NCBI RefSeq assembly: GCF_041320595.1
Contig: NZ_CP166625.1
Coordinates: 2,181,501-2,245,500 of the forward strand
Direction of reading: 5' to 3'
Length of the DNA stretch: 64,000 nucleotides
Source of the DNA: Pleomorphomonas sp. PLEO
Lineage (GTDB): Bacteria; Pseudomonadota; Alphaproteobacteria; Rhizobiales; Pleomorphomonadaceae
This document shows positions 1,639-63,789 of the stretch, one piece after another (positions within the stretch are counted from its first letter, which is position 1; each line of letters starts with the position of its first letter). Below the pieces are notes generated by a model. The model was given only the letters and a program-made list of their open reading frames with translations. It did no database searches and was not told where the DNA came from. The position numbers were made by a program, and so were the translations under genes.

Positions 1639-1666
1639 TTGACAAAGTTCCCCTGGCTGCTACATG
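1639..1666 (+). promoter_or_regulatory. Candidate sigma-70 promoter for the mntP riboswitch transcript
   Basis: A perfect TTGACA at 1639-1644 is followed after 16 bases by TACATG at 1661-1666, a weak -10. The position, just ahead of the riboswitch fold, supports the call. Nothing else does. Confidence 0.45.
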
Positions 1667-1669
1667 CCT

Positions 1670-1775
1670 CGCCCATCGGGGAGTAGTCACCGCCCTTGGG
1701 CGGGATCGTGTCAACAGGCTTGCGTGGATGCGCATGGCACGATCAGCCGAGAAATCGGCCCGGCAAGACCGTGGC
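1670..1775 (+). ncRNA. yybP-ykoY manganese riboswitch
   Basis: The leader of mntP shows the conserved blocks of the Mn2+-sensing yybP-ykoY aptamer in the right order: GGGGAGTAG at 1678-1686, GTCAACAGGC at 1710-1719 and CGGCAAGACCG at 1761-1771, with hairpin-forming sequence between. The element ends about 65 bases before the mntP start. This class binds Mn2+ and usually turns on Mn exporters, and mntP is its most common target in proteobacteria. The remaining leader (1776-1840) would carry the expression switch. Confidence 0.85.
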
Positions 1776-1840
1776 GCCACCTGCTTTGTGCGGACAAGCG
1801 GGGCTGGAGCGCCCGGTCTGTTGTCCGTCGGAGCCTATCG

Positions 1841-30434: not shown

Positions 30435-33400
30435 GTGGTTTTTCAACCTGTTCGGCGGGTCTCCGGGACCGTTCGCCGCATTCAGCTCGCCATCGCCACG
30501 GCGCTTTTGTATCTGCTGATGCCGGTGATCGGCGCTTATGCCGCGCCTTCGGTCTATTGTACGACCCAGACCGCGACCGTGAACCAGGGCGGTTCGGTCG
30601 TCTTCGACGTCACCAACTGCGATGGGCCGTCCAATGTGGGACTCGGTTCGGATAGCAGTCATCCGGCGCACGGCACAAGTTCGCTCAGTGGCCAATTAGA
30701 TGGGGCAGGGACGGAGAGAGTCACCTATACCCACAATGGTGATACCGCGACGTCCGACAGCTTCTACTTCTTCGACGAAGATGGCGACACCATCACCTTC
30801 AACATCACGATCAACCCGGCGACGTCGGCCAGCATCGCGGTGAGCCCGGCCAGCCGCAACGAAGACAGCGGCGCCGCGTTTACCTATACGGTGACCCTCA
30901 GCCAGACCAACGCCTCGTCGACCACGGTGAACCTCACGCGCAGCGGCACCGCCACCAGTGGCACGGATTACACCGGCGCGGTGAGCAGCGTGGTGGTGGC
31001 CGCCAATACCAGCACGGCCACCTTTGCCGTCACCCCGGTCGCCGACGCCACGGTGGAAGCCGACGAAACGGTGACCATGAGCGTCGCCAGTGGCAGCGGC
31101 TATTCCATTGGCAGCCCCAGCAGTGCCACCGCCACCATCCTCAACGACGACGTGCCTACCGCCACGATTGCCGTGTCGCCCTCCTCCGTGGCCGAGGACG
31201 GCGCCACGAACCTGGTTTATACCGTCACGCTGGACCAGACGCCGACGAGCGCGACATCGGTCGGCTTCAGCGTCGGCGGCGGCGCCACCTCGGGCGTCGA
31301 CTACGCGGCCGTCAGCTCGCCGCTGGTGATCGCCGCCGGCCAGACCAGCGGTACGATCACCATCAATCCGACCGCCGACGGCACCGTCGAGGCGGACGAA
31401 ACCGTGGCGCTGACGCTGGCGGCCGGCTCCGGCTATAGCGTCGGTTCGCCTTCAAGCGCGACCGGCACCATCCTCAACGACGACCAGCCGTCATTGTCGA
31501 TCAACGACGTCTCGCTCAGCGAAGGCGACGCCGGCACCAGTTCCGCCACCTTCACCGTATCGCTGAGCCAGCCGGCCGGCGCCGGCGGCGTCAGCTTCGA
31601 TATCGCCACCGCCGATGGCACCGCCACGGGCGGCGTGGACTACGTGGCTTCGAGCCTGACCGGCCAGACCATCGCCGCCGGCAGCAGCAGCGCCACCTTC
31701 ACCGTCCAGGTCAATGGCGACACGCTCAACGAGCCGAACGAAACCTTCTTCGTCAACGTTTCCAACGTCTCCGGCGCAAGCGTGGCCGATGCGCAGGGTC
31801 AGGGCACCATCGTCAACGACGACGGGCAGCCAACGCTGTCCATCGACGACGTCAGCGTCAACGAAGGCAACAGCGGCACCACCACGGCCACCTTCACGGT
31901 GAGCCTGAGCGCGGCCAGCGGCCAGACCGTTTCGGTCAACTACGCCTCCGCCGATGGCACCGCCACCGCCGGCAGCGACTATGTCGCGCGCTCCGGCACG
32001 CTGACGTTTGCGCCCGGCACCACCGCGCAGGGCGTGGCGGTGACGATCAATGGCGACACGGCGATCGAGCCCAGCGAAACCTTCAGCGTCAACCTATCCG
32101 GCGCCAGCAACGCGACCATCGCCCAGGCCACCGGCACCGGCACCATCCTCAACGACGACGGGCAGCCGTCGTTGTCGATCAACGATGTCTCGCTCAGCGA
32201 AGGCAACGCCGGCACCAGCGCCTTCACCTTCACCGTATCGCTGAGCCAGCCGGCCGGCGCTGGCGGGGTCAGCTTCGATATCGCCACCGCCGACGGCACC
32301 GCCACGGCCGGCGTCGACTACGTGGCCGCGAGCCAGGCCGGCCAGACCATCGCCGCCGGGGCCAGCAGCGCCACCTTCACCGTTCAGGTCAGCGGCGACA
32401 CGCTCAACGAGCCGAACGAGACCTTTTTCGCCAACGTCACCAACGTCTCCGGCGCCAGCGTGGCCGATGCGCAGGGTCAGGGCACCATCGTCAACGACGA
32501 CGGATCGCCGACGCTGTCCATCGACGACGTCAGCGTCAACGAAGGCAACAGCGGCACCACCACGGCCACCTTTACGGTGAGCCTGAGCTCGGCCAGCGGC
32601 CAGACCGTCTCGGTCGGTTACGCCTCCGCCGATGGCACCGCCGTCGCCGGCAGCGACTATGTTGCCGTCTCCGGTACGCTGACGTTTGCGCCCGGCACCA
32701 CCACGAAGACCTTCACGGTGGCGATCGTCGGCGACACCACGGTGGAGCCCGACGAAGCCTTCAGCGTCAACCTATCCGGTGCCAGCAACGCGACCATCGC
32801 CCGGGCCACCGGCACCGGTACCGTCAGCAACGACGACGCCGCCGTCACGGTCACGGTCACGGTCGCGCCGGCGACGCTGCCGTCGGCGACGGTGGGCAGC
32901 GCCTATAGCCAGACGCTGAGTGCCAGCGGCGGCACCGCGCCCTATAGCTTCGCGATCACGTCCGGCACGCTGCCATCCGGGCTGAGCCTGAGCGGCGCCG
33001 GCGTGTTGTCCGGCACACCCACCGCCAGTGGCAACTCCAGCTTTACCGTGACCGCCACCGACAGCGCCGGCAGCCCCGTCAGCGGCGGCCGTGCCTACAC
33101 GCTGACGATCAGCGCGGCGCCGGCCAGCTTCGTGTTCACGCCATCGGGTGGTGCGTTGCCCGAGGCCATGGTGGGCGAGGACTACAGCCAGGCGATCTCG
33201 GCCAGCGGTGGCAGCGGCTCGCTGCTCTACAGCCTTGCTTCCGGCACGCTGCCCGATGGCCTGGTGCTGAACGTCTCCACCGGCGCGCTGACCGGCCCGC
33301 TCGCTGCCAGCGCCACGGTGGGCGACTACAGCTTCACCCTTCAGGTGACCGACGGCAACAGTGCCACGGCCACGGCTTCCTTCACGCTCAAGGTCAAGGC

Positions 33401-57624: not shown

Positions 57625-57650
57625 AAAGGCCGCCCGGTTGGGCGGCCTTT
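57625..57650. terminator. Bidirectional terminator between the MarR gene and the secreted-protein array
   Basis: AAAGGCCGCCC (57625-57635) and GGGCGGCCTTT (57640-57650) form a perfect 11-bp stem with a four-base loop. It serves the rightward regulator gene and the leftward first array gene. Confidence 0.85.
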
Positions 57651-57694
57651 TCGATGATCGTCATCTGTTGGCGATCGATGAATTGGGCTGAGGA

Positions 57695-58060
57695 TCAGTT
57701 GCCGATCACGTCGCTGTTGGCAGCGTAGGGGACGAACGACTGCTGAGCGACCTGCGCGCTGGCGCCCGACAGGATCACCTTGGTCACGAAGGCCGACTGG
57801 CCATCGGCCGAACCCGGATCATATTCGACGACCGTCAGAGGCGAGACGCCGTGGGTGCCGATCACCGCGCCGTCAGCGACGGTGGCATAACGCTGGGCGT
57901 CGGCGGCCGCGGCGGCGGCATTGGCCGAATTGACGTTGGTGGGCTGAGCGATGAACGGCGAGGAGCCACTGTCGACCGACGGGTCGAAGGTGGACGCGGC
58001 GTTGGCAAAGGCGGGAACCAGGGCAACGGCGAAAGCGGCGACGGCGAGGAACTTGTTCAT
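57695..58060 (-). CDS. Small secreted array protein, copy 1
   Basis: This 121-residue protein has a signal peptide (MNKFLAVAAFAVALVPAFAN). The mature part starts ASTFDPSVDSGSSPF and carries the array family core: ANAAAAAADAQRYATVA, VIGTHGVSPLTVVEYDPG and a C-terminal PYAANSDVIGN. There are no cysteines or membrane segments after the signal. GGAGTTACATC precedes the ATG. It differs from copy 3 at only three positions. I recognise no known family. It is predicted to be periplasmic or released. Confidence 0.88.
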   Translation of the reverse strand: MNKFLAVAAFAVALVPAFANAASTFDPSVDSGSSPFIAQPTNVNSANAAAAAADAQRYATVADGAVIGTHGVSPLTVVEYDPGSADGQSAFVTKVILSGASAQVAQQSFVPYAANSDVIGN

Positions 58061-58185
58061 GGTGTAACTCCGGTCTTGAATTGGGGGTCTTGAATTGGGG
58101 GTGGTTTTTGTCGGGGTGGTCTTTGTCGGGGGGCAGCGGGGAGGAGGTCTTGTTCGCTGCCGATGACCTCAATGTGCCCCTTGAT

Positions 58186-58367
58186 CGATCACGGCGAAAC
58201 CGGCCCCCGCTGACGAGTGCGAGTGAGGAAGTTGAACGGCGGATCGCGAAATCGTGCGCGGCGTGTTGGCCTGTCGCAGCGAGTCTAGGGAAAACCCCGG
58301 TATGCTAGGGGAAACCGTCGGTCGAGCGATCACGGAGGAGGGGGCTAAACCCAGCGAGCGATCACGG
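58186..58367 (-). promoter_or_regulatory. Conserved upstream region of array copy 1 with three CGATCACGG motifs
   Basis: CGATCACGG occurs exactly at 58186-58194, 58327-58335 and 58359-58367. The two distal copies are 32 bases apart, about three helical turns. The pair is preserved (with CGGTCACGG or CGATCACGA variants) ahead of copies 2-5, so it is probably a regulator site or promoter part. Confidence 0.55.
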
Positions 58368-58501
58368 AACGCCGTCGCGCCAGGGCTGAGTTTTTTCGAT
58401 AAACGCCGGAAAATGTGCGTTAGCCGCCTTTGAGGGCTGGCCGGGCATTCATTTGGCGCGACAGGCAATTGACGCCCTTTGTCAGCAACGGCCCGGGCAA
58501 C

Positions 58502-58532
58502 AAAAAAGCCGCCCGGGTTGGGGGCGGCCTTT
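58502..58532 (-). terminator. Terminator of array copy 2
   Basis: GCCGCCC and GGGCGGC form the stem (outer GGCC pairing). On the minus strand it is followed by TTTTTTG, a strong T-tract, 45 bases after the stop of copy 2. Confidence 0.85.
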
Positions 58533-58576
58533 CCGATGATCGTCATCTCTTGGCGATCGATGGGTCTATCTGAGGA

Positions 58577-58945
58577 TCAGTTGCCGATCACTTCGCTGTT
58601 GGCAGCGTAGGGGACGAACGACTGATGAGCTGTTGACGCCGAGGCGCCGGACAGGACCACCTTGGTCACGAAGGCCGACTGGCCATCGGCGGAACCCGGA
58701 TCATATTCGACGACCGTCAGCGGCGAGACGCCGTGGGTACCGACTACTGCGCTGTCGGCGACGGTGGCATAACGCTGGGCATCGGCGGCAGCGGCGGCGG
58801 CATTGGCCGGATTGACTTCAGCGGGAGCGGTGACGAAGGTCGGGGAGGCGTTGTTGGCGCCCGGATCGAAGCTGGTCGAAGCGGCATTGGCGACGGCGGG
58901 AACGAGGGCGAGGGCGAAAGCGGCGGCGGTGAGGAACTTGTTCAT
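58577..58945 (-). CDS. Small secreted array protein, copy 2
   Basis: This 122-residue protein has signal peptide MNKFLTAAAFALALVPAVAN. The mature part begins ASTSFDPGANNASPTF, then the core ANAAAAAADAQRYATVA, VVGTHGVSPLTVVEYDPGSA and SFVPYAANSEVIGN. The C-terminal half is of the copy 1/3 type (SFVPYA), but the N-terminal part (NNASPTFVTAP) is of the copy 4-6 type. It may therefore be a recombinant between the two subgroups. It has the same GGAGTTACATC ribosome site as the other copies and its own terminator. Confidence 0.88.
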   Translation of the reverse strand: MNKFLTAAAFALALVPAVANAASTSFDPGANNASPTFVTAPAEVNPANAAAAAADAQRYATVADSAVVGTHGVSPLTVVEYDPGSADGQSAFVTKVVLSGASASTAHQSFVPYAANSEVIGN

Positions 58946-59353
58946 GATGTAACTCCGGTCTTCAATTTGTGTTGTCGGTTTTTGTCGGGAGGCAGCGGTG
59001 AGGTGTTGTTCGCTGCCGATGACCGTAATGTGCCCCTTGATCGATCACGGCGAAACCGGCCCTCGCTGACGAGTGCGAGCGCGGAAGTTGAACGGCGGAT
59101 CGCGAAATCGTGTGCGGTCGTTGAGTTGTCGCGGCGAGGCCTAGGGAAAACCCCGGTATGCTGTGGGAAACCGTTCGGCGAGCGGTCACGGCCGCACGGC
59201 CTTGATCGGACGCGCGATCACGAAACGTCGTCGCGTGCAGGCCGAATTTTTCCGATAAAGCCTGGAAAATGCGCGTTAGCCGCCTTTGGATGGCCGGCAT
59301 TCATTTGGCGCGGCAAGTGATTGACGACCTTTGCCGGTAACGGGCCCGGCAAC

Positions 59354-59384
59354 AAAAAAGCCGCCCGGTTGGGGGCGGCCTTTT
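59354..59384 (-). terminator. Terminator of array copy 3
   Basis: AAAAAAGCCGCCC and GGGCGGCCTTTT form a hairpin around GGTTGG, with a run of T on the minus strand, 41 bases past the stop of copy 3. Confidence 0.85.
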
Positions 59385-59424
59385 CGATGATCGTCATATC
59401 GCGACGATCGATGAACGTGGCGTA

Positions 59425-59790
59425 TCAGTTGCCGATCACTTCGCTGTTGGCAGCGTAGGGGACGAACGACTGCTGAGCGGCCTGCGCGCTGGCGCCGGAC
59501 AGGATCACCTTGGTCACGAAGGCCGACTGGCCATCGGCCGAACCCGGATCATACTCGACGACCGTCAGCGGCGAGACGCCGTGGGTTCCGATCACCGCGC
59601 CGTCAGCGACGGTGGCGTAACGCTGGGCATCGGCGGCAGCGGCGGCGGCATTGGCCGGATTGACGTTGGTGGGCTGGGCGATGAACGGCGAGGAGCCGCT
59701 GTCGACCGACGGGTCGAAGGTGGACGCGGCGTTGGCGAAAGCGGGAACCAGGGCAACGGCGAAAGCGGCGACGGCGAGGAACTTGTTCAT
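59425..59790 (-). CDS. Small secreted array protein, copy 3
   Basis: This 121-residue protein is nearly the same as copy 1, with three substitutions only (in the NPAN, AQAAQ and NSEV segments). It has the same signal peptide, the same SSPFIAQPTNVN segment and the same leader. This points to a recent duplication or gene conversion. It is the last copy before the array is interrupted by the outer membrane protein gene. Confidence 0.88.
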   Translation of the reverse strand: MNKFLAVAAFAVALVPAFANAASTFDPSVDSGSSPFIAQPTNVNPANAAAAAADAQRYATVADGAVIGTHGVSPLTVVEYDPGSADGQSAFVTKVILSGASAQAAQQSFVPYAANSEVIGN

Positions 59791-60353
59791 GATGTAACTC
59801 CGGTCTTGAATTGGGGGTCTTGAATTGGGGGTGGTTTTTGTCGGGGTGGAATTTGTCGGGGGGCAGCGGTGAGGAGGAGGAGGTCTTGTTCGCTGCCGAT
59901 GACCTCAATGTGCCCCTTGATCGATCACGGCGAAACCGGCCCCCGCTGACGAGTGCGAGTGAGGAAGGTGAACGGTGGATCGCGAAATCGTGCGCGGCGT
60001 GTTGAACGGTCTTGCTGGGGGTCGGGAAAATCCCGGTATGCTGCGGGGAACCGTCCGACGAGCGGTCACGGGCGGATGGCCGTGATCGGACGTATGATCA
60101 CGAAACGCCGTCGCGTGCAGGCCGACTTTTTCCGATAAACGCGGCAAAAAGCGTGTTAGCCGCCCTTTGAAGGGCGCCCTGAGCGGGTTTTGCCTCTGCG
60201 GGAGTGCTCTCACCCGACCATGCGGTCGGGTCGGCGGCTGTGGAGCGGGGCTTTCAACCGGCGGCGCGCACCGGCCGCAACATAACTTCATAACAAAGAA
60301 CGAAACGCAACGACGCCATCTGACACGATTGGGTCTCTAGCCGACAAGGTGAC

Positions 60354-60366
60354 TGAGGTTACCTCA
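60354..60366. promoter_or_regulatory. Palindrome upstream of the outer membrane protein gene
   Basis: TGAGGTTACCTCA is a perfect inverted repeat (6-bp arms, one central base), 24 bases before the ATG at 60391. The location near the promoter or leader suggests an operator. No regulator is assigned. Confidence 0.4.
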
Positions 60367-60390
60367 TCAACAAAACAATAGAGGCCGACA

Positions 60391-61002
60391 ATGCGCATCC
60401 GAGTACTGGTACTTTCAATCATGAATTTCGCTATGATTTCGCCCGTTGCCGCGGCGGACTTGCCCACACCTGATGCTCCGGAATACCCGGCGAGCCTGCC
60501 TTCGACCGCCTTCGACTGGTCCGGCCTCTATGTCGGTGCCCAGGCAGGCTATGTAATCAATCAGATCGGCTTGACAGATAGCGAGGACCTGAAAAGCGGT
60601 TCCTTCGGGATGTTTGGCGGCTACAACTTTGTCTACTCGGGTGTCGTTGTCGGTGTGGAGAACGACGTCAACTATAATTGGAGCGATGGCGAGACCGTCG
60701 GGCTGGATTGGGATGGTTCGGTGCGCGGGCGTGTCGGCTATGCCTGGGATCGCGTCCTGTTCTACGGAACGGCCGGATTGGCTGCCGCCTCGGGAAGCGT
60801 CGATCTGGGGCGCACCAAGAAAGAGGATATTCTTGTTGGCTGGACGGCCGGCGTCGGCGCCGAGTATGCCATCACGGACAACATCCTGGCCCGCGCCGAA
60901 TATCGCTATTCCGATTTCGGCAGCGTCGACTTCGGCGGCAGTATCGGTGAATTCAAGGCCGACCAGAACAAGGTGTCGTTGGGCGTCGCCTATAAATTCT
61001 AA
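60391..61002 (+). CDS. Omp25/Omp31-family outer membrane beta-barrel protein
   Basis: This 203-residue protein has a signal peptide ending PVAAAD. Next comes FDWSGLYVGAQAGYVINQIG, the typical first strand of rhizobial Omp25/Omp31-like proteins, then alternating strands (MFGGYNFVYSGVVVGVENDV, VRGRVGYAWDRVLFYGTAG, ILARAEYRYSDFG) and a final LGVAYKF with C-terminal Phe. It is an eight-stranded barrel in the outer membrane. It lies inside the secreted-protein array, on the opposite strand, between copies 3 and 4. Confidence 0.93.
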   Translation: MRIRVLVLSIMNFAMISPVAAADLPTPDAPEYPASLPSTAFDWSGLYVGAQAGYVINQIGLTDSEDLKSGSFGMFGGYNFVYSGVVVGVENDVNYNWSDGETVGLDWDGSVRGRVGYAWDRVLFYGTAGLAAASGSVDLGRTKKEDILVGWTAGVGAEYAITDNILARAEYRYSDFGSVDFGGSIGEFKADQNKVSLGVAYKF

Positions 61003-61045
61003 AGCAGATTGACCGGGCAAGCTTCCGACAGGCCACCAATAACGG

Positions 61046-61073
61046 AAAAGGCCGCCCCCGACAGGGCGGCCTT
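61046..61073. terminator. Terminator between the outer membrane protein gene and array copy 4
   Basis: AAAAGGCCGCCC and GGGCGGCCTT form a stem around CCGACA. On the minus strand it is followed by TTTTCCGTT. It could serve both convergent genes. Confidence 0.8.
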
Positions 61074-61120
61074 CCCGACAAACGTCAGCTTTCGCCGACC
61101 GGTTGAGCTTGAGCTGACGA

Positions 61121-61486
61121 TCAGTTGCCGATCACATCGCTGTTGTCGGCATAGGGGATGTAGTGCTGCTGGGCACTCGGAGCGGCGGCGCCGGGAAGGA
61201 CCAGCTTGGCCACGAAGGACGAGTCGCCCGAGGCCGCGCCCGGATCATATTCGACGACGCCCTGCGGGGAGACGCCGTGGGTGCCGATCACCACATTGCT
61301 GGCAACGGTGGCGTAACGCTGGGCATCGGCGGCGGCCGCGGCGGCATTGGCCGGATTGACCTGGGCTGGGACGGTGACGAACGTCGGGGAAGCGTTATCG
61401 GCGCCCGGATCGAAGGAAGCGGCGGCATTGGCGAGGACGGGGGCCAGGACGAGGGAGAAAGCGGCGGCGATCAGGAACTTGTTCAT
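61121..61486 (-). CDS. Small secreted array protein, copy 4
   Basis: This 121-residue protein has signal peptide MNKFLIAAAFSLVLAPVLAN. The mature part has AASFDPGADNASPTFVTVP, the core ANAAAAAADAQRYATVA and VIGTHGVSPQGVVEYDPGAA, and ends HYIPYADNSDVIGN. It belongs to the copy 4-6 subgroup (HYIPYA instead of SFVPYA) and is the most divergent member. The ribosome site is GGAGTTATCACC, one of the few changes in the leader. Start 61486 begins the signal peptide. The frame to 61507 is not used. Confidence 0.88.
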   Translation of the reverse strand: MNKFLIAAAFSLVLAPVLANAAASFDPGADNASPTFVTVPAQVNPANAAAAAADAQRYATVASNVVIGTHGVSPQGVVEYDPGAASGDSSFVAKLVLPGAAAPSAQQHYIPYADNSDVIGN

Positions 61487-61871
61487 GGTGATAACTCCGG
61501 TCTTCAATCTTATTGGGGTGGTCTTTGTCGGGGGGGCAGCGGTGAGGAGGAGGTCTTGTTCGCTGCCGATGACCCTTATTTGCCCCTTGATCGATCACGG
61601 TGAAACCGGCCCTCGCTGACGAGTGCGAGGGGGAAAGTTGAACGGTGGATCGCAACTCCGTGTTCGGGGAGTTGAACGGTTTTGGCGCCTGCCGGAAAAA
61701 GCCCGGTATGCTCCGGGAAACTGTCCGGCGCGCGGTCACGGATTATCGGCTCTGAACCCCAGGAGCGATCACGAAAGGCCGCTGGCAGGTGCTAAATTTT
61801 CTCGACGAATGCTGGAAAATGCGCGTTAGCCGGCTTTGAAGGCACGCTTTGGCGCTGCGCGGCGCAACTCC

Positions 61872-61910
61872 GGACGCAAAACCGCCGGGCACTTTTGCTG
61901 GAGTTGCTCA
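61872..61910. repeat. Short rhizobial-type intergenic repeat, copy 2
   Basis: ACGCAAAACCGCCGGGCACT followed by TTTGCTGGAGTTGCTC, similar to 57015-57055. It sits inside the spacer between array copies 4 and 5 and makes this spacer longer than the others. Confidence 0.5.
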
Positions 61911-62020
61911 AAGTTCGCTCCGCTCCGGTTCTCGAATTCATCGCTATCTGCCTCACCCCAGCGAGTTTCGAGGCAGGCTTTTAGCGGCTGCCATCTGACC
62001 GCGCAGACCGCCAATAACGG

Positions 62021-62048
62021 AAAAGGCCGCCCCCGACAGGGCGACCTT
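62021..62048 (-). terminator. Terminator of array copy 5
   Basis: AAAAGGCCGCCC and GGGCGACCTT pair with one mismatch around CCGACA, followed on the minus strand by TTTTCCGTT. Confidence 0.75.
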
Positions 62049-62095
62049 CCCGACAAACGTCAGCTTGCGCTGACCGGTTGAGCTTGGGCTGACGA

Positions 62096-62461
62096 TCAGT
62101 TGCCGATCACATCGCTGTTGGCGGCATAGGGGATGTAGTGCTGCTGGGCACTCGCGGTGCTGGCACCCGGCAGAATGGTCTTGGTCACGAAGTCGGTGCC
62201 GCTGGCCAGGCCCGGATCGTATTCGATGACGGTACTCGGCGAGACGCCGTGGGTACCGACAACAGCGCTGTCAGCGACGGTGGCGTAACGCTGGGCATCG
62301 GCGGCGGCAGCGGCGGCGTTGGCCGAATTGACCTGGGCAGGCGCGGTGACGAACGTCGGGGAAGCGTTGTCGGCACCCGGGTCAAAGCTGGTGGAGGCAG
62401 CGTTGGCAACGGCGGGAACGAGGACGAGCGCGAAAGCGGCGGCGGTGAGGAACTTGTTCAT
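62096..62461 (-). CDS. Small secreted array protein, copy 5
   Basis: This 121-residue protein has signal peptide MNKFLTAAAFALVLVPAVAN. The mature part is STSFDPGADNASPTFVTAP, then ANAAAAAADAQRYATVA, VVGTHGVSPSTVIEYDPG, a shortened linker LASGTDFVTK and the end HYIPYAANSDVIGN. It shares the LASGTD linker with copy 6, so copies 5 and 6 are the closest pair in this subgroup. The leader contains a perfect CCCTCGC/GCGAGGG hairpin. Confidence 0.88.
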   Translation of the reverse strand: MNKFLTAAAFALVLVPAVANAASTSFDPGADNASPTFVTAPAQVNSANAAAAAADAQRYATVADSAVVGTHGVSPSTVIEYDPGLASGTDFVTKTILPGASTASAQQHYIPYAANSDVIGN

Positions 62462-62936
62462 GATGTAACTCCGGTCTTCAATCTTGTTGTGTTGTCGGTT
62501 TCTGTCGGGGGGCAGCGGGGAGGAGGTCTTGTTCGCTGCCGATGACCCTTATGTGCCCCTTGCTCGATCACGGCGAAACCGGCCCTCGCTGACGAGTGCG
62601 AGGGCGAAAGTTGAACGGTGGATCGCAAATCCGTGTTCGGAGAGTTGAACGGTTTTTGCACCCGCCGAAAAAACCCCGGCCTGCTCCGGGAAACTGTTCG
62701 GCGAGCGATCACGGATTGTCGGTTCTGAACCCCAGGGGCGATCACGAAAGGCCGTCGCCTCGGGGTGAGATTTTCCCGACGAATGCCGGAGAATGCGCGT
62801 TAGTCGGCTTTGAAAATACGCCGAAGGGGAGGCGTTTGCGCCGGGCAATGCCTTCAGCTCTGTCTTCGAGCGCGCGCGGCTATAAGTGCTTCGTCATCGT
62901 TGCTTTGGCCGTCGATCATGCAGGCCGCAATAACGG

Positions 62937-62972
62937 AAAAGGCCGCTCCCGGTGGAGCGGCCTTCCCGACAA
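62937..62972 (-). terminator. Terminator of array copy 6
   Basis: AAAAGGCCGCTCC and GGAGCGGCCTT form a stem. Compared with the other units, the inner GCCC/GGGC is replaced by GCTCC/GGAGC, a compensating change that supports a real RNA hairpin. Confidence 0.85.
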
Positions 62973-63011
62973 ACGTCAGCTTTCGCTGACCAGTTGAGCT
63001 TGGTCTGGCGA

Positions 63012-63374
63012 TCAGTTGCCGATCACATCGCTGTTGGCGGCATAGGGGATGTAGTGCGGCTGAGCGATCGGCGCGCTGGCACCCGGCAGGATGGTCGTGG
63101 TCACCAGATCGGTGCCGCTGGCCAGGCCCGGATCATATTCAGTGACGGTGCTCGGCGAAACGCCGTGGGTACCGACCACTGCGCTGTCAGCGACGGTGGC
63201 ATAACGCTGAGCATCGGCGGCCGCGGCGGCGGCATTGGCCGGATTGACCTGGGCCGGTGCGGTGACGAACGTCGGGGAAGCGTTGTCAGCACCCGGATCG
63301 AACGAAGTGGCAGCGCTGGCAACGGCGGGAACCAGGGCAAGGGCGAAAGCGGCGGCGGTGAGGAACTTGTTCAT
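63012..63374 (-). CDS. Small secreted array protein, copy 6
   Basis: This 120-residue protein has signal peptide MNKFLTAAAFALALVPAVAS. The mature part is ATSFDPGADNASPTFVTAP, the core ANAAAAAADAQRYATVA, VVGTHGVSPSTVTEYDPG and the end HYIPYAANSDVIGN. The minus frame is open upstream to 63641, but the ribosome site and signal peptide fix the start at 63374. Its leader lacks the distal one of the paired CGATCACG motifs. It is the first copy of the array in the direction of transcription. Confidence 0.88.
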   Translation of the reverse strand: MNKFLTAAAFALALVPAVASAATSFDPGADNASPTFVTAPAQVNPANAAAAAADAQRYATVADSAVVGTHGVSPSTVTEYDPGLASGTDLVTTTILPGASAPIAQPHYIPYAANSDVIGN

Positions 63375-63789
63375 GATGTAACTCCGGTCTTGAATTGGGA
63401 TGTCGGTTTCTGTCGGGGTGGTCTTTGTCGGGGGGCAGCGGTGAAGAGGAGGAGTTCTTGTTCGCTGCCGATGACCTTTATTTGCCCCTTGCTCGATCAC
63501 GGCGAAACCGGCCCTCGCTGACGAGTGCGAGTGCGGAAGTTGAACGGCGGATCGCGAAATCGTGTGCGGCGAGTTGAACGGTCGCGAGGAGGCTAAGGAA
63601 AATCCCGGTATGCCGCCGGAAACCGGCGCAAAATTGCTCACGCAAGGCTGCGACGCGCGTGAACGGAGCCTTGCCCGCGATCACGAAATGCGCGGTGCCC
63701 CTGGCTCAATTTTCCCGAAATTTCTCGATCAACGCTGGAAAAAGCGCGTTAGCCGCCTTTGAAAGGCCGATCGGCGCGCTTGCCCTGGC

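What the first reader, a model, noticed from the sequence alone, without database searches (positions are those of the whole stretch)
57625..63770. Six tandem copies of an unrecognised small secreted protein, each with its own leader and terminator
Six genes of 120-122 codons with signal peptides share a strict core (ANAAAAAADAQRYATVA, GTHGVSP, VIGN at the end). They form two subgroups (SFVPYA versus HYIPYA). Units have separate leaders and terminators, so each is transcribed alone, which favours dosage or independent control over an operon. Copies 1 and 3 are almost the same, while copy 2 looks like a mosaic. The mature proteins have no cysteines and a conserved C-terminus. A role as abundant periplasmic or surface protein, or as secreted signal, is possible but not shown.
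Basis: seen in the sequence. Interest (0 to 1): 0.8.

Follow-up and report, generated by a model that had tools for sequence, protein, structure and literature searches.

The report
Genus-specific secreted repeat-protein gene family
Six near-copies of a small exported protein turn out to be half of a larger set of genes, so far seen in only one genus of soil bacteria, that share one promoter and look strongly and jointly expressed, but whose job is still unknown.

Summary
The six genes are real, and the array is only part of the system. The genome has 12 full copies plus one short copy in three clusters: six in the window, two about 3 kb past its end, four plus the short one 550 kb away. No Pfam or NCBIfam model reaches its cut-off. 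Relatives occur in 14 of 14 genomes of the genus (Pleomorphomonas), 0 of 6 from sister genera, and no others in a 397-genome sample of the order. Proteins repeat a ~55-60-residue unit. They share a promoter with repeated TGAWCG sites and a 5'-UTR hairpin with a CCUCC loop. In 20 genomes, 51 of 56 strong promoter hits precede a family gene, four lie at contig ends, one is a relic. So the copies look co-regulated, against 'independent control'. Codon use resembles ribosomal proteins; copies are mosaics, one across 550 kb. Best reading: an abundant Sec-exported, probably disordered envelope or extracellular protein made by one regulon. Location and function are inferred; AlphaFold gave no usable fold.

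The parts
57695..58060 (-). copy 1 (W1), 121 aa secreted protein
58577..58945 (-). copy 2 (W2), 122 aa, mosaic
59425..59790 (-). copy 3 (W3), 121 aa, 96% DNA identity to copy 1
61121..61486 (-). copy 4 (W4), 121 aa; 3' half identical to copy C1 550 kb away
62096..62461 (-). copy 5 (W5), 121 aa
63012..63374 (-). copy 6 (W6), 120 aa
58140..58273 (-). shared promoter block of copy 1
   Evidence: model R1 hit, E 1.1e-29; in the training set
58996..59125 (-). shared promoter block of copy 2
   Evidence: model R1 hit, E 6.8e-29; in the training set
59876..60011 (-). shared promoter block of copy 3
   Evidence: model R1 hit, E 7.6e-31; in the training set
61546..61681 (-). shared promoter block of copy 4
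   Evidence: model R1 hit, E 1.6e-31; in the training set
62519..62654 (-). shared promoter block of copy 5
   Evidence: model R1 hit, E 2.7e-31; in the training set
63448..63584 (-). shared promoter block of copy 6
   Evidence: model R1 hit, E 2.1e-32; in the training set
58130..58163 (-). 5'-UTR hairpin GGCAGCG/CGCTGCC of copy 1, loop contains CCTCCTCCC
58989..59019 (-). 5'-UTR hairpin of copy 2
59860..59899 (-). 5'-UTR hairpin of copy 3
61533..61569 (-). 5'-UTR hairpin of copy 4
62509..62542 (-). 5'-UTR hairpin of copy 5, loop contains CCTCCTCCC
63432..63471 (-). 5'-UTR hairpin of copy 6
57628..57647 (-). terminator-like hairpin GGCCGCCC..GGGCGGCC after copy 1
   Evidence: read directly; not listed by the scan
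58508..58529 (-). terminator-like hairpin after copy 2
   Evidence: read directly; not listed by the scan
59357..59385 (-). terminator-like hairpin after copy 3
   Evidence: one search lists it on the + strand only
61045..61076 (-). terminator-like hairpin after copy 4
62020..62048 (-). terminator-like hairpin after copy 5
   Evidence: a small stem inside it is listed
62936..62964 (-). terminator-like hairpin after copy 6
   Evidence: not listed by the scan

Best explanation
A genus-restricted family of Sec-exported, acidic, alanine-rich, cysteine-free, probably disordered repeat proteins, made in bulk by one dedicated regulon. Shown by sequence: repeat unit, occurrence in every searched genome of the genus and in none searched outside it, one shared promoter with repeated TGAWCG sites, a conserved 5'-UTR hairpin, codon use like that of ribosomal proteins, and mosaic copies that fit gene conversion. 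Inferred: one regulator switches the copies on together; the 5' hairpin protects the mRNA; many copies raise dosage while cassette exchange keeps a pool of related but different C-terminal halves; the mature ~100-residue chains act as bulk material in the periplasm, on the cell surface or in the extracellular matrix rather than as an enzyme or transporter.
For: Signal-peptide motif with ANA/ASA cleavage site; mature pI 4.05-4.23, 20-23% Ala, no Cys or Trp. 14 of 14 genus genomes, 0 of 6 sister-genus genomes (the same 14 in the order sample). 45 promoters aligned over 156 columns with 26 invariant columns, although relatives are as little as 43% identical to the first row of A5. Of 56 promoter hits at E<=1e-4, 51 lie within 200 nt of a family gene, 4 at contig ends, 1 is a relic; 45 of the 56 trained the model, and of the other 11 six precede a family gene, among them one in G018 that the protein search had missed (hhalign probability 96%). 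TGAWCG 3.96 per 280 bp against 0.44 in shuffles, n = 46. Hairpin in 41 of 46 leaders by a fixed-arm test against a mean of 1.0, maximum 5, with shuffled downstream sequence; paired changes GGCAACG/CGTTGCC and AGCAGCG/CGCTGCT at the same place, and GGCGGCG/CGCCGCC three bases further on in L078. CAI 0.69-0.80 for the 12 full copies against a leave-one-out mean of 0.711 for 18 ribosomal proteins. dN/dS below 1 in all 66 pairs.
Against: No expression, localisation or phenotype data. AlphaFold models are poor (mean pLDDT 44 and 40), which is weak evidence of disorder because the alignments are shallow (20 and 13 rows). A compact soluble periplasmic protein would look the same. A consensus sigma-70 scan found no promoter in the stretch (0 found, 1.3 expected), so the promoter core and start site are inferred from conservation. 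Folding energies of the six whole leaders do not beat shuffles (z 0.01 to -1.22). CAI separates only partly: 1 to 9 of 39 mechanically chosen background ORFs score as high as a given full copy. One TGAWCG site per promoter is part of the anchor used to align them. The promoter is weaker in G018 (8e-14, 5e-11) and G011 (2.9e-8; two more at 6e-4 and 8e-4), and one search scored only the best 150 first-look candidates per genome.
Confidence: 0.45

Rival explanations
1. Periplasmic stress-protection or ligand-buffering protein (working like HdeA or a metal/metabolite buffer): each unit is a small folded beta-helix-beta piece with a conserved GTHG/GTHD and FDP motif that binds something; the regulon answers an envelope stress.
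For: Thr-His of the GTHG motif is invariant in 15 aligned units; AF2 draws a beta-helix-beta pattern in the 2.5-unit protein (low confidence); one of five window proteins, P0002, has HdeA as its weak NCBIfam match, E 0.14.
Against: HdeA score 12.3 bits against a cut-off of 85; short members (82-96 aa) lack the central part of the unit; no binding pocket seen.
Confidence: 0.25
2. The leader RNA matters as much as the protein: each mRNA starts with a hairpin whose loop shows an anti-Shine-Dalgarno CCUCC(UCC)n stretch, so it may pair with its own GGAG ribosome-binding site or with other mRNAs, as alpha-r14 sRNAs do.
For: CCTCC within 40 nt after the 5' arm in 39 of 45 leaders against 12.4 in shuffles; the exact CCTCCTCCC in the loops of copies 1 and 5; the same nonamer is the anti-SD motif of alpha-r14 sRNAs in the passage read in PMC10746234.
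Against: One hairpin, not three; Rfam gives no match in the array at gathering level, and the 12 matches at E<=5 are all far below their cut-offs; 6 of 45 leaders lack CCTCC, two of them in the window's own genome.
Confidence: 0.15
3. Neutral or passive amplification: a chance secreted protein with a good promoter spread by duplication and conversion, with no selected role.
For: Found in one genus only; copy number varies (one strong promoter hit in G009, ten in G000); short and truncated copies exist.
Against: Present in 14 of 14 genomes of the genus; promoter and hairpin kept over wide divergence; dN/dS below 1; ribosomal-like codon use of full copies.
Confidence: 0.08
4. Secreted peptide signal or precursor whose C-terminus (YADNSDVIGN type) is the active part.
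For: Conserved C-terminus in the 120-122 aa form; export signal. A sugar-type ABC transporter (label recalled) flanks one family site in three genomes, G010, G016 and G007 (L051, L058, L061).
Against: Relatives with 2-2.5 units end in other sequences such as FKNTVVFAN or HNLRG; that transporter is not beside the other family loci compared.
Confidence: 0.07

Closest known systems
Streptomyces chaplins and rodlins (recalled, not from a call)
   Same: Several small exported paralogues without catalytic motifs that are made in bulk and act together at the cell surface; a likeness of plan only.
   Different: No Pfam match of any kind for 5 window proteins and none above cut-off for 7 relatives; different phylum; repeat unit and promoter unrelated as far as recalled.
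alpha-r14 / NfeR1 anti-SD small RNAs of rhizobia (passage in PMC10746234)
   Same: Hairpin loops showing CCUCC, with the exact CCUCCUCCC in copies 1 and 5.
   Different: Here one hairpin in the leader of an mRNA with an open reading frame; no Rfam match.
5'-UTR stabilising stem-loops of bacterial mRNAs (recA, vacA in passages of PMC7509114)
   Same: A stem-loop close to the presumed mRNA 5' end.
   Different: Here shared by a multigene family and with a conserved loop motif; no stability measured.
HdeA periplasmic chaperone (NF007576)
   Same: Small exported protein.
   Different: E 0.14, 12.3 bits against cut-off 85, for P0002 only.

Membership tests
Any Pfam-A family | score above the curated cut-off | tested here: not met
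   0 families at E<=1 for five window proteins; best for seven divergent relatives DUF7908 E 0.016, 15.9 bits against 27
Any NCBIfam family | score above the curated cut-off | tested here: not met
   best in five window proteins E 0.045; best in seven relatives CTB family bacteriocin E 0.0016, 18.6 bits against 32
HdeA | NF007576 cut-off 85 bits | tested here: not met
   12.3 bits, P0002 only
alpha-r14 sRNA | three hairpins each with CCUCCUCCC (as described in the passage of PMC10746234) | tested here: not met
   one such hairpin in each of the six leaders folded; exact nonamer in copies 1 and 5 only
alpha-r14 sRNA | Rfam covariance match | tested here: not met
   no such family listed
Chaplin/rodlin-type coat proteins | Pfam match | tested here: not met
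Chaplin/rodlin-type coat proteins | self-assembly at the cell surface | not testable with these tools
   no laboratory data
Sec-exported protein | N-terminal signal peptide | tested here: inconclusive
   charged start, hydrophobic core and AxA motif by eye and simple motif search; no signal-peptide predictor on hand

The most novel reading that the evidence does not exclude
A self-contained, genus-defining surface regulon: one unknown regulator reading TGAWCG sites drives a whole family of disordered coat proteins whose C-terminal halves are reshuffled by ectopic gene conversion, while the same transcripts carry 5' anti-Shine-Dalgarno hairpins that act as built-in regulatory RNA. It may even be linked to the odd cell shapes after which the genus is named (that link is pure speculation).
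Probability: 0.15. Interest if true: 0.8.

Novelty: new variant of a known kind. Interest (0 to 1): 0.55.

Why it matters
It is a protein family without a Pfam or NCBIfam model, present in all 14 searched genomes of one genus and not found in those searched outside it, with a promoter that stays recognisable where the protein has diverged. That makes the regulator and the function directly testable: one genome (G009) gave a single strong promoter hit, so one deletion might remove the whole system. It would also be a clear case of how a lineage-specific gene, its promoter and its RNA leader spread together and diversify by gene conversion. That the genus is plant-associated and fixes nitrogen is recalled, not tested.

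Tried and rejected
Known family: Pfam, NCBIfam, Rfam and PDB sequences gave nothing usable. Phage or plasmid cargo: tblastn of P0002 found no match at E<=1e-3 in 50,697 phage and 72,556 plasmid records.

Neighbouring regulator: an ArsR-like gene (label recalled) beside the rpsD-grxD copy in several genomes is found in 8 of 20 genomes at E<=1e-20 and not in the window's own, so it cannot be the common regulator. The MarR/hydrolase/kinase neighbours of the window cluster recur at L050, L054 and L057 only, in whole or part, among the loci compared.

A role tied to the beta-barrel gene between copies 3 and 4: among the loci compared a related barrel lies by the family only in G007 (L059), seen by similarity of the overlapping frame and by reading the upstream sequence; so it is not a constant partner.

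Origin at the rpsD-grxD interval: 11 of 14 genus genomes have a family gene beside grxD (by frames of 110 aa or more, some of them antisense to the real gene): eight with rpsD on the other side within the fetched stretch, two (G008, G013) with the ArsR-like neighbour there, one (G012) at a contig end. The interval holds no family gene or promoter in G011, G018 or the six sister-genus genomes; so it is an old but not the first site.

Structure: two AlphaFold models, mean pLDDT 44 and 40; I ran no fold search on them because matches would mean nothing.

Stem counting on alignment A6 was dropped, because MAFFT misaligned the 3' arms; the fixed-arm test replaced it. Five of its 46 rows missed: four were anchored wrongly and carry a hairpin, the fifth (L076) has a different stem. 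A sixth row, also wrongly anchored, counted as a hit by chance. Rows dropped: L055:1133, L055:1744, L056:3847 and L050:3983 (46 of 50 left); those and L076 from A4 (45 of 50 left). Seven of 57 family ORFs gave no promoter anchor. The weak hits G231 (E 0.005) and G514 (E 6e-4) were judged chance; G231 did not recur with A3.
Full report
What is there. Six open frames of 120-122 aa on the minus strand share 68 invariant columns, signal-peptide motifs and a strict core. The mature parts have 99-101 residues, pI 4.05-4.23, 20-23% alanine, 1-2 basic and 8 acidic residues, no cysteine and no tryptophan.

The array is part of something larger. The genome (5.48 Mb, one contig; the window is 2181501-2245500) holds 12 full copies: six in the window, two at 2248256-2249086 just beyond it, and four at 2792609-2795756; an 82-aa short version lies among the last four. 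The genus is Pleomorphomonas by inference: a pattern-based scan found relatives only in P. oryzae DSM 16300 and the MAG CTSoil_107, and contigs of handles G010 and G012, in the window's genus, have the same lengths.

Distribution. With a 20-row profile 14 of 20 genomes of the family match at E<=0.01, all 14 of the window's genus and 0 of 6 from five other genera. With a 15-row profile of the repeat unit 14 of 397 sampled genomes of the order match at E<=0.001, the same 14; in 385 sampled genomes of the class only the window's own and one weak hit at E 6e-4 match. The order and class figures are samples, and at most 16 first-look candidates per genome were scored. The 20-row profile on the order sample added one weak hit outside the genus, G231 at E 0.005. 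No plasmid or phage record matches P0002.

Repeat anatomy. A script found 57 family ORFs, partial ones included, in 34 stretches. The unit (about FDPAARDNDPQF..NPANAAAAKADAARYA..SGAVIGTHGS..VVTT, 54-67 aa in 15 aligned examples) occurs once, one and a half times, twice or two and a half times. Window proteins are one unit plus the start of a second and a C-terminal tail. No Pfam or NCBIfam model reaches its cut-off in 5 window and 7 divergent proteins; the PDB sequence search gave three matches at E 0.51-0.92.

One promoter for the family. The upstream 140 bp are conserved: GTTCAACT..CACACG.TTTCGCGAYC..GTTCAACT..GCRCA.TCGTCA..GGTTTCGCCGTGATCG..CCAAAT..GGTCATCGGCAGCG, with 26 invariant columns in 45 sequences. 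A sequence-only model of it was searched in 20 genomes, with the best 150 first-look candidates of each scored. It gives 56 hits at E<=1e-4, all in the genus and in all 14 of its genomes; the best hit is below 1e-26 in 12 of them and weaker in G018 (8e-14) and G011 (2.9e-8). The best hit in the six sister-genus genomes is E 0.0045, before a gene unlike the family (G003). Of the 56, 51 have a family gene within 200 nt, four lie at contig ends (G016:C12, G013:C168, C125, C237) and one (G013:C255) has no family ORF after it and looks like a relic. 45 of the 56 were in the training set. Of the other 11, six precede a family gene, four are the contig-end hits and one is the relic; one of the six, in G018, had escaped the protein search (hhalign probability 96%). 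In the window's genome there are ten strong promoter hits for 12 full genes: two pairs (B2-B1, C4-C3) lie head to tail, 81 and 99 nt apart, with one promoter. The short copy has no strong hit. TGAWCG hexamers occur 3.96 times per 280 bp against 0.44 in shuffles (46 promoters), often near -79, -45 and +2 from the CGTGATCG anchor in the rows printed; the anchor itself holds one. The sigma factor and regulator are not known; a consensus sigma-70 scan found nothing.

Leader hairpin. In most leaders a 6-8 bp stem, GGCAGCG/CGCTGCC, directly follows the conserved GGTCATC, with loops of 7-28 nt. A fixed-arm test finds it in 41 of 46 leaders against a mean of 1.0 with shuffled downstream sequence (the misses and one chance hit are told under Tried and rejected). 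Paired changes occur: GGCAACG/CGTTGCC and AGCAGCG/CGCTGCT in place, and GGCGGCG/CGCCGCC shifted by three bases in L078; L076 has another stem. The stem is in the predicted fold of all six window leaders, but the folding energy of whole leaders is not better than shuffles (z 0.01 to -1.22). CCTCC follows the 5' arm within 40 nt in 39 of 45 leaders against 12.4 expected, and copies 1 and 5 have the exact CCUCCUCCC that the passage read in PMC10746234 calls the anti-Shine-Dalgarno motif of alpha-r14 sRNAs. Passages of PMC7509114 describe 5'-UTR stem-loops that stabilise mRNAs.

Expression signs. With weights from 18 ribosomal protein genes (leave-one-out mean 0.711) the 12 full copies score CAI 0.69-0.80, the short copy 0.446, the barrel gene 0.531; 39 mechanically chosen ORFs, rpsD among them, average 0.589 (sd 0.127), and 1 to 9 of them reach the score of a given full copy. 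This suggests, but does not show, high expression.

Evolution. Copy C1, 550 kb away, is 97-100% identical to its neighbour C2 over about the first 120 nt and 100% identical to window copy 4 from about nt 181 on; copy 2 is a similar mosaic of copies 5/6 and 3. Pairs across clusters (W4/C1, W6/C2, B1/C3, B2/C4) are 92-96% identical. The 66 pairwise dN/dS values lie between 0.02 and 0.67. A family gene lies beside grxD in 11 of 14 genus genomes, with rpsD on the other side in eight of them, but the rpsD-grxD interval has none in G011, G018 and six sister-genus genomes.

How it most likely works. One regulator acting at the shared promoter makes the copies together; the hairpin protects or tunes the mRNA; the proteins leave the cytoplasm through Sec and serve as bulk material of the envelope or matrix. 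The first half of this chain rests on sequence evidence, the second is inference. AlphaFold gave no confident model.

Literature. I searched the held library for Pleomorphomonas with 'secreted', 'genome', 'hypothetical protein' plus 'proteome', 'signal peptide' and 'paralog' and saw only listings: 15 of 23, 15 of 84, 1 of 1, 3 of 3 and 1 of 1 papers. No title or abstract start shown there describes this family. Preprints and most subscription papers are not held, so it may be described elsewhere.

Noticed in passing
window 1666-1839 (+): yybP-ykoY manganese riboswitch (RF00080, 51.3 bits) at the far end of the window, unrelated to the finding.
   Followed up: no
window 60391-61002 (+): Outer-membrane beta-barrel gene (PF13505, E 1.2e-19) sits between copies 3 and 4; a related barrel lies beside a short family member in G007 (L059).
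   Followed up: partly
window 61717-61702, 62691-62674, 63621-63603 (-): An inverted repeat around GCATACCGGG or GCAGGCCGGG followed by a T run lies just upstream of the promoter blocks of copies 4, 5 and 6, with similar sequence before copies 1-3; it may be an insulating terminator or an operator.
   Followed up: partly
L014 5554-5802 (-), L050 4150-4440 (+), L056 3878-4168 (+), L059 4060-4332 (+): Short family members (82-96 aa as listed) keep the signal peptide and a YADNP.LIG tail but lack most of the central unit; the one in the window's genome has low CAI (0.446) and no strong promoter hit.
   Followed up: partly
window about 31200-33150 (+): Repeated stretches, seen in passing, that look like Calx-beta-type repeats (label recalled, not tested).
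   Followed up: no
L152 1541-1639 (+), G013:C255: Family promoter relic without a family gene, next to what looks by eye like a tRNA gene.
   Followed up: partly
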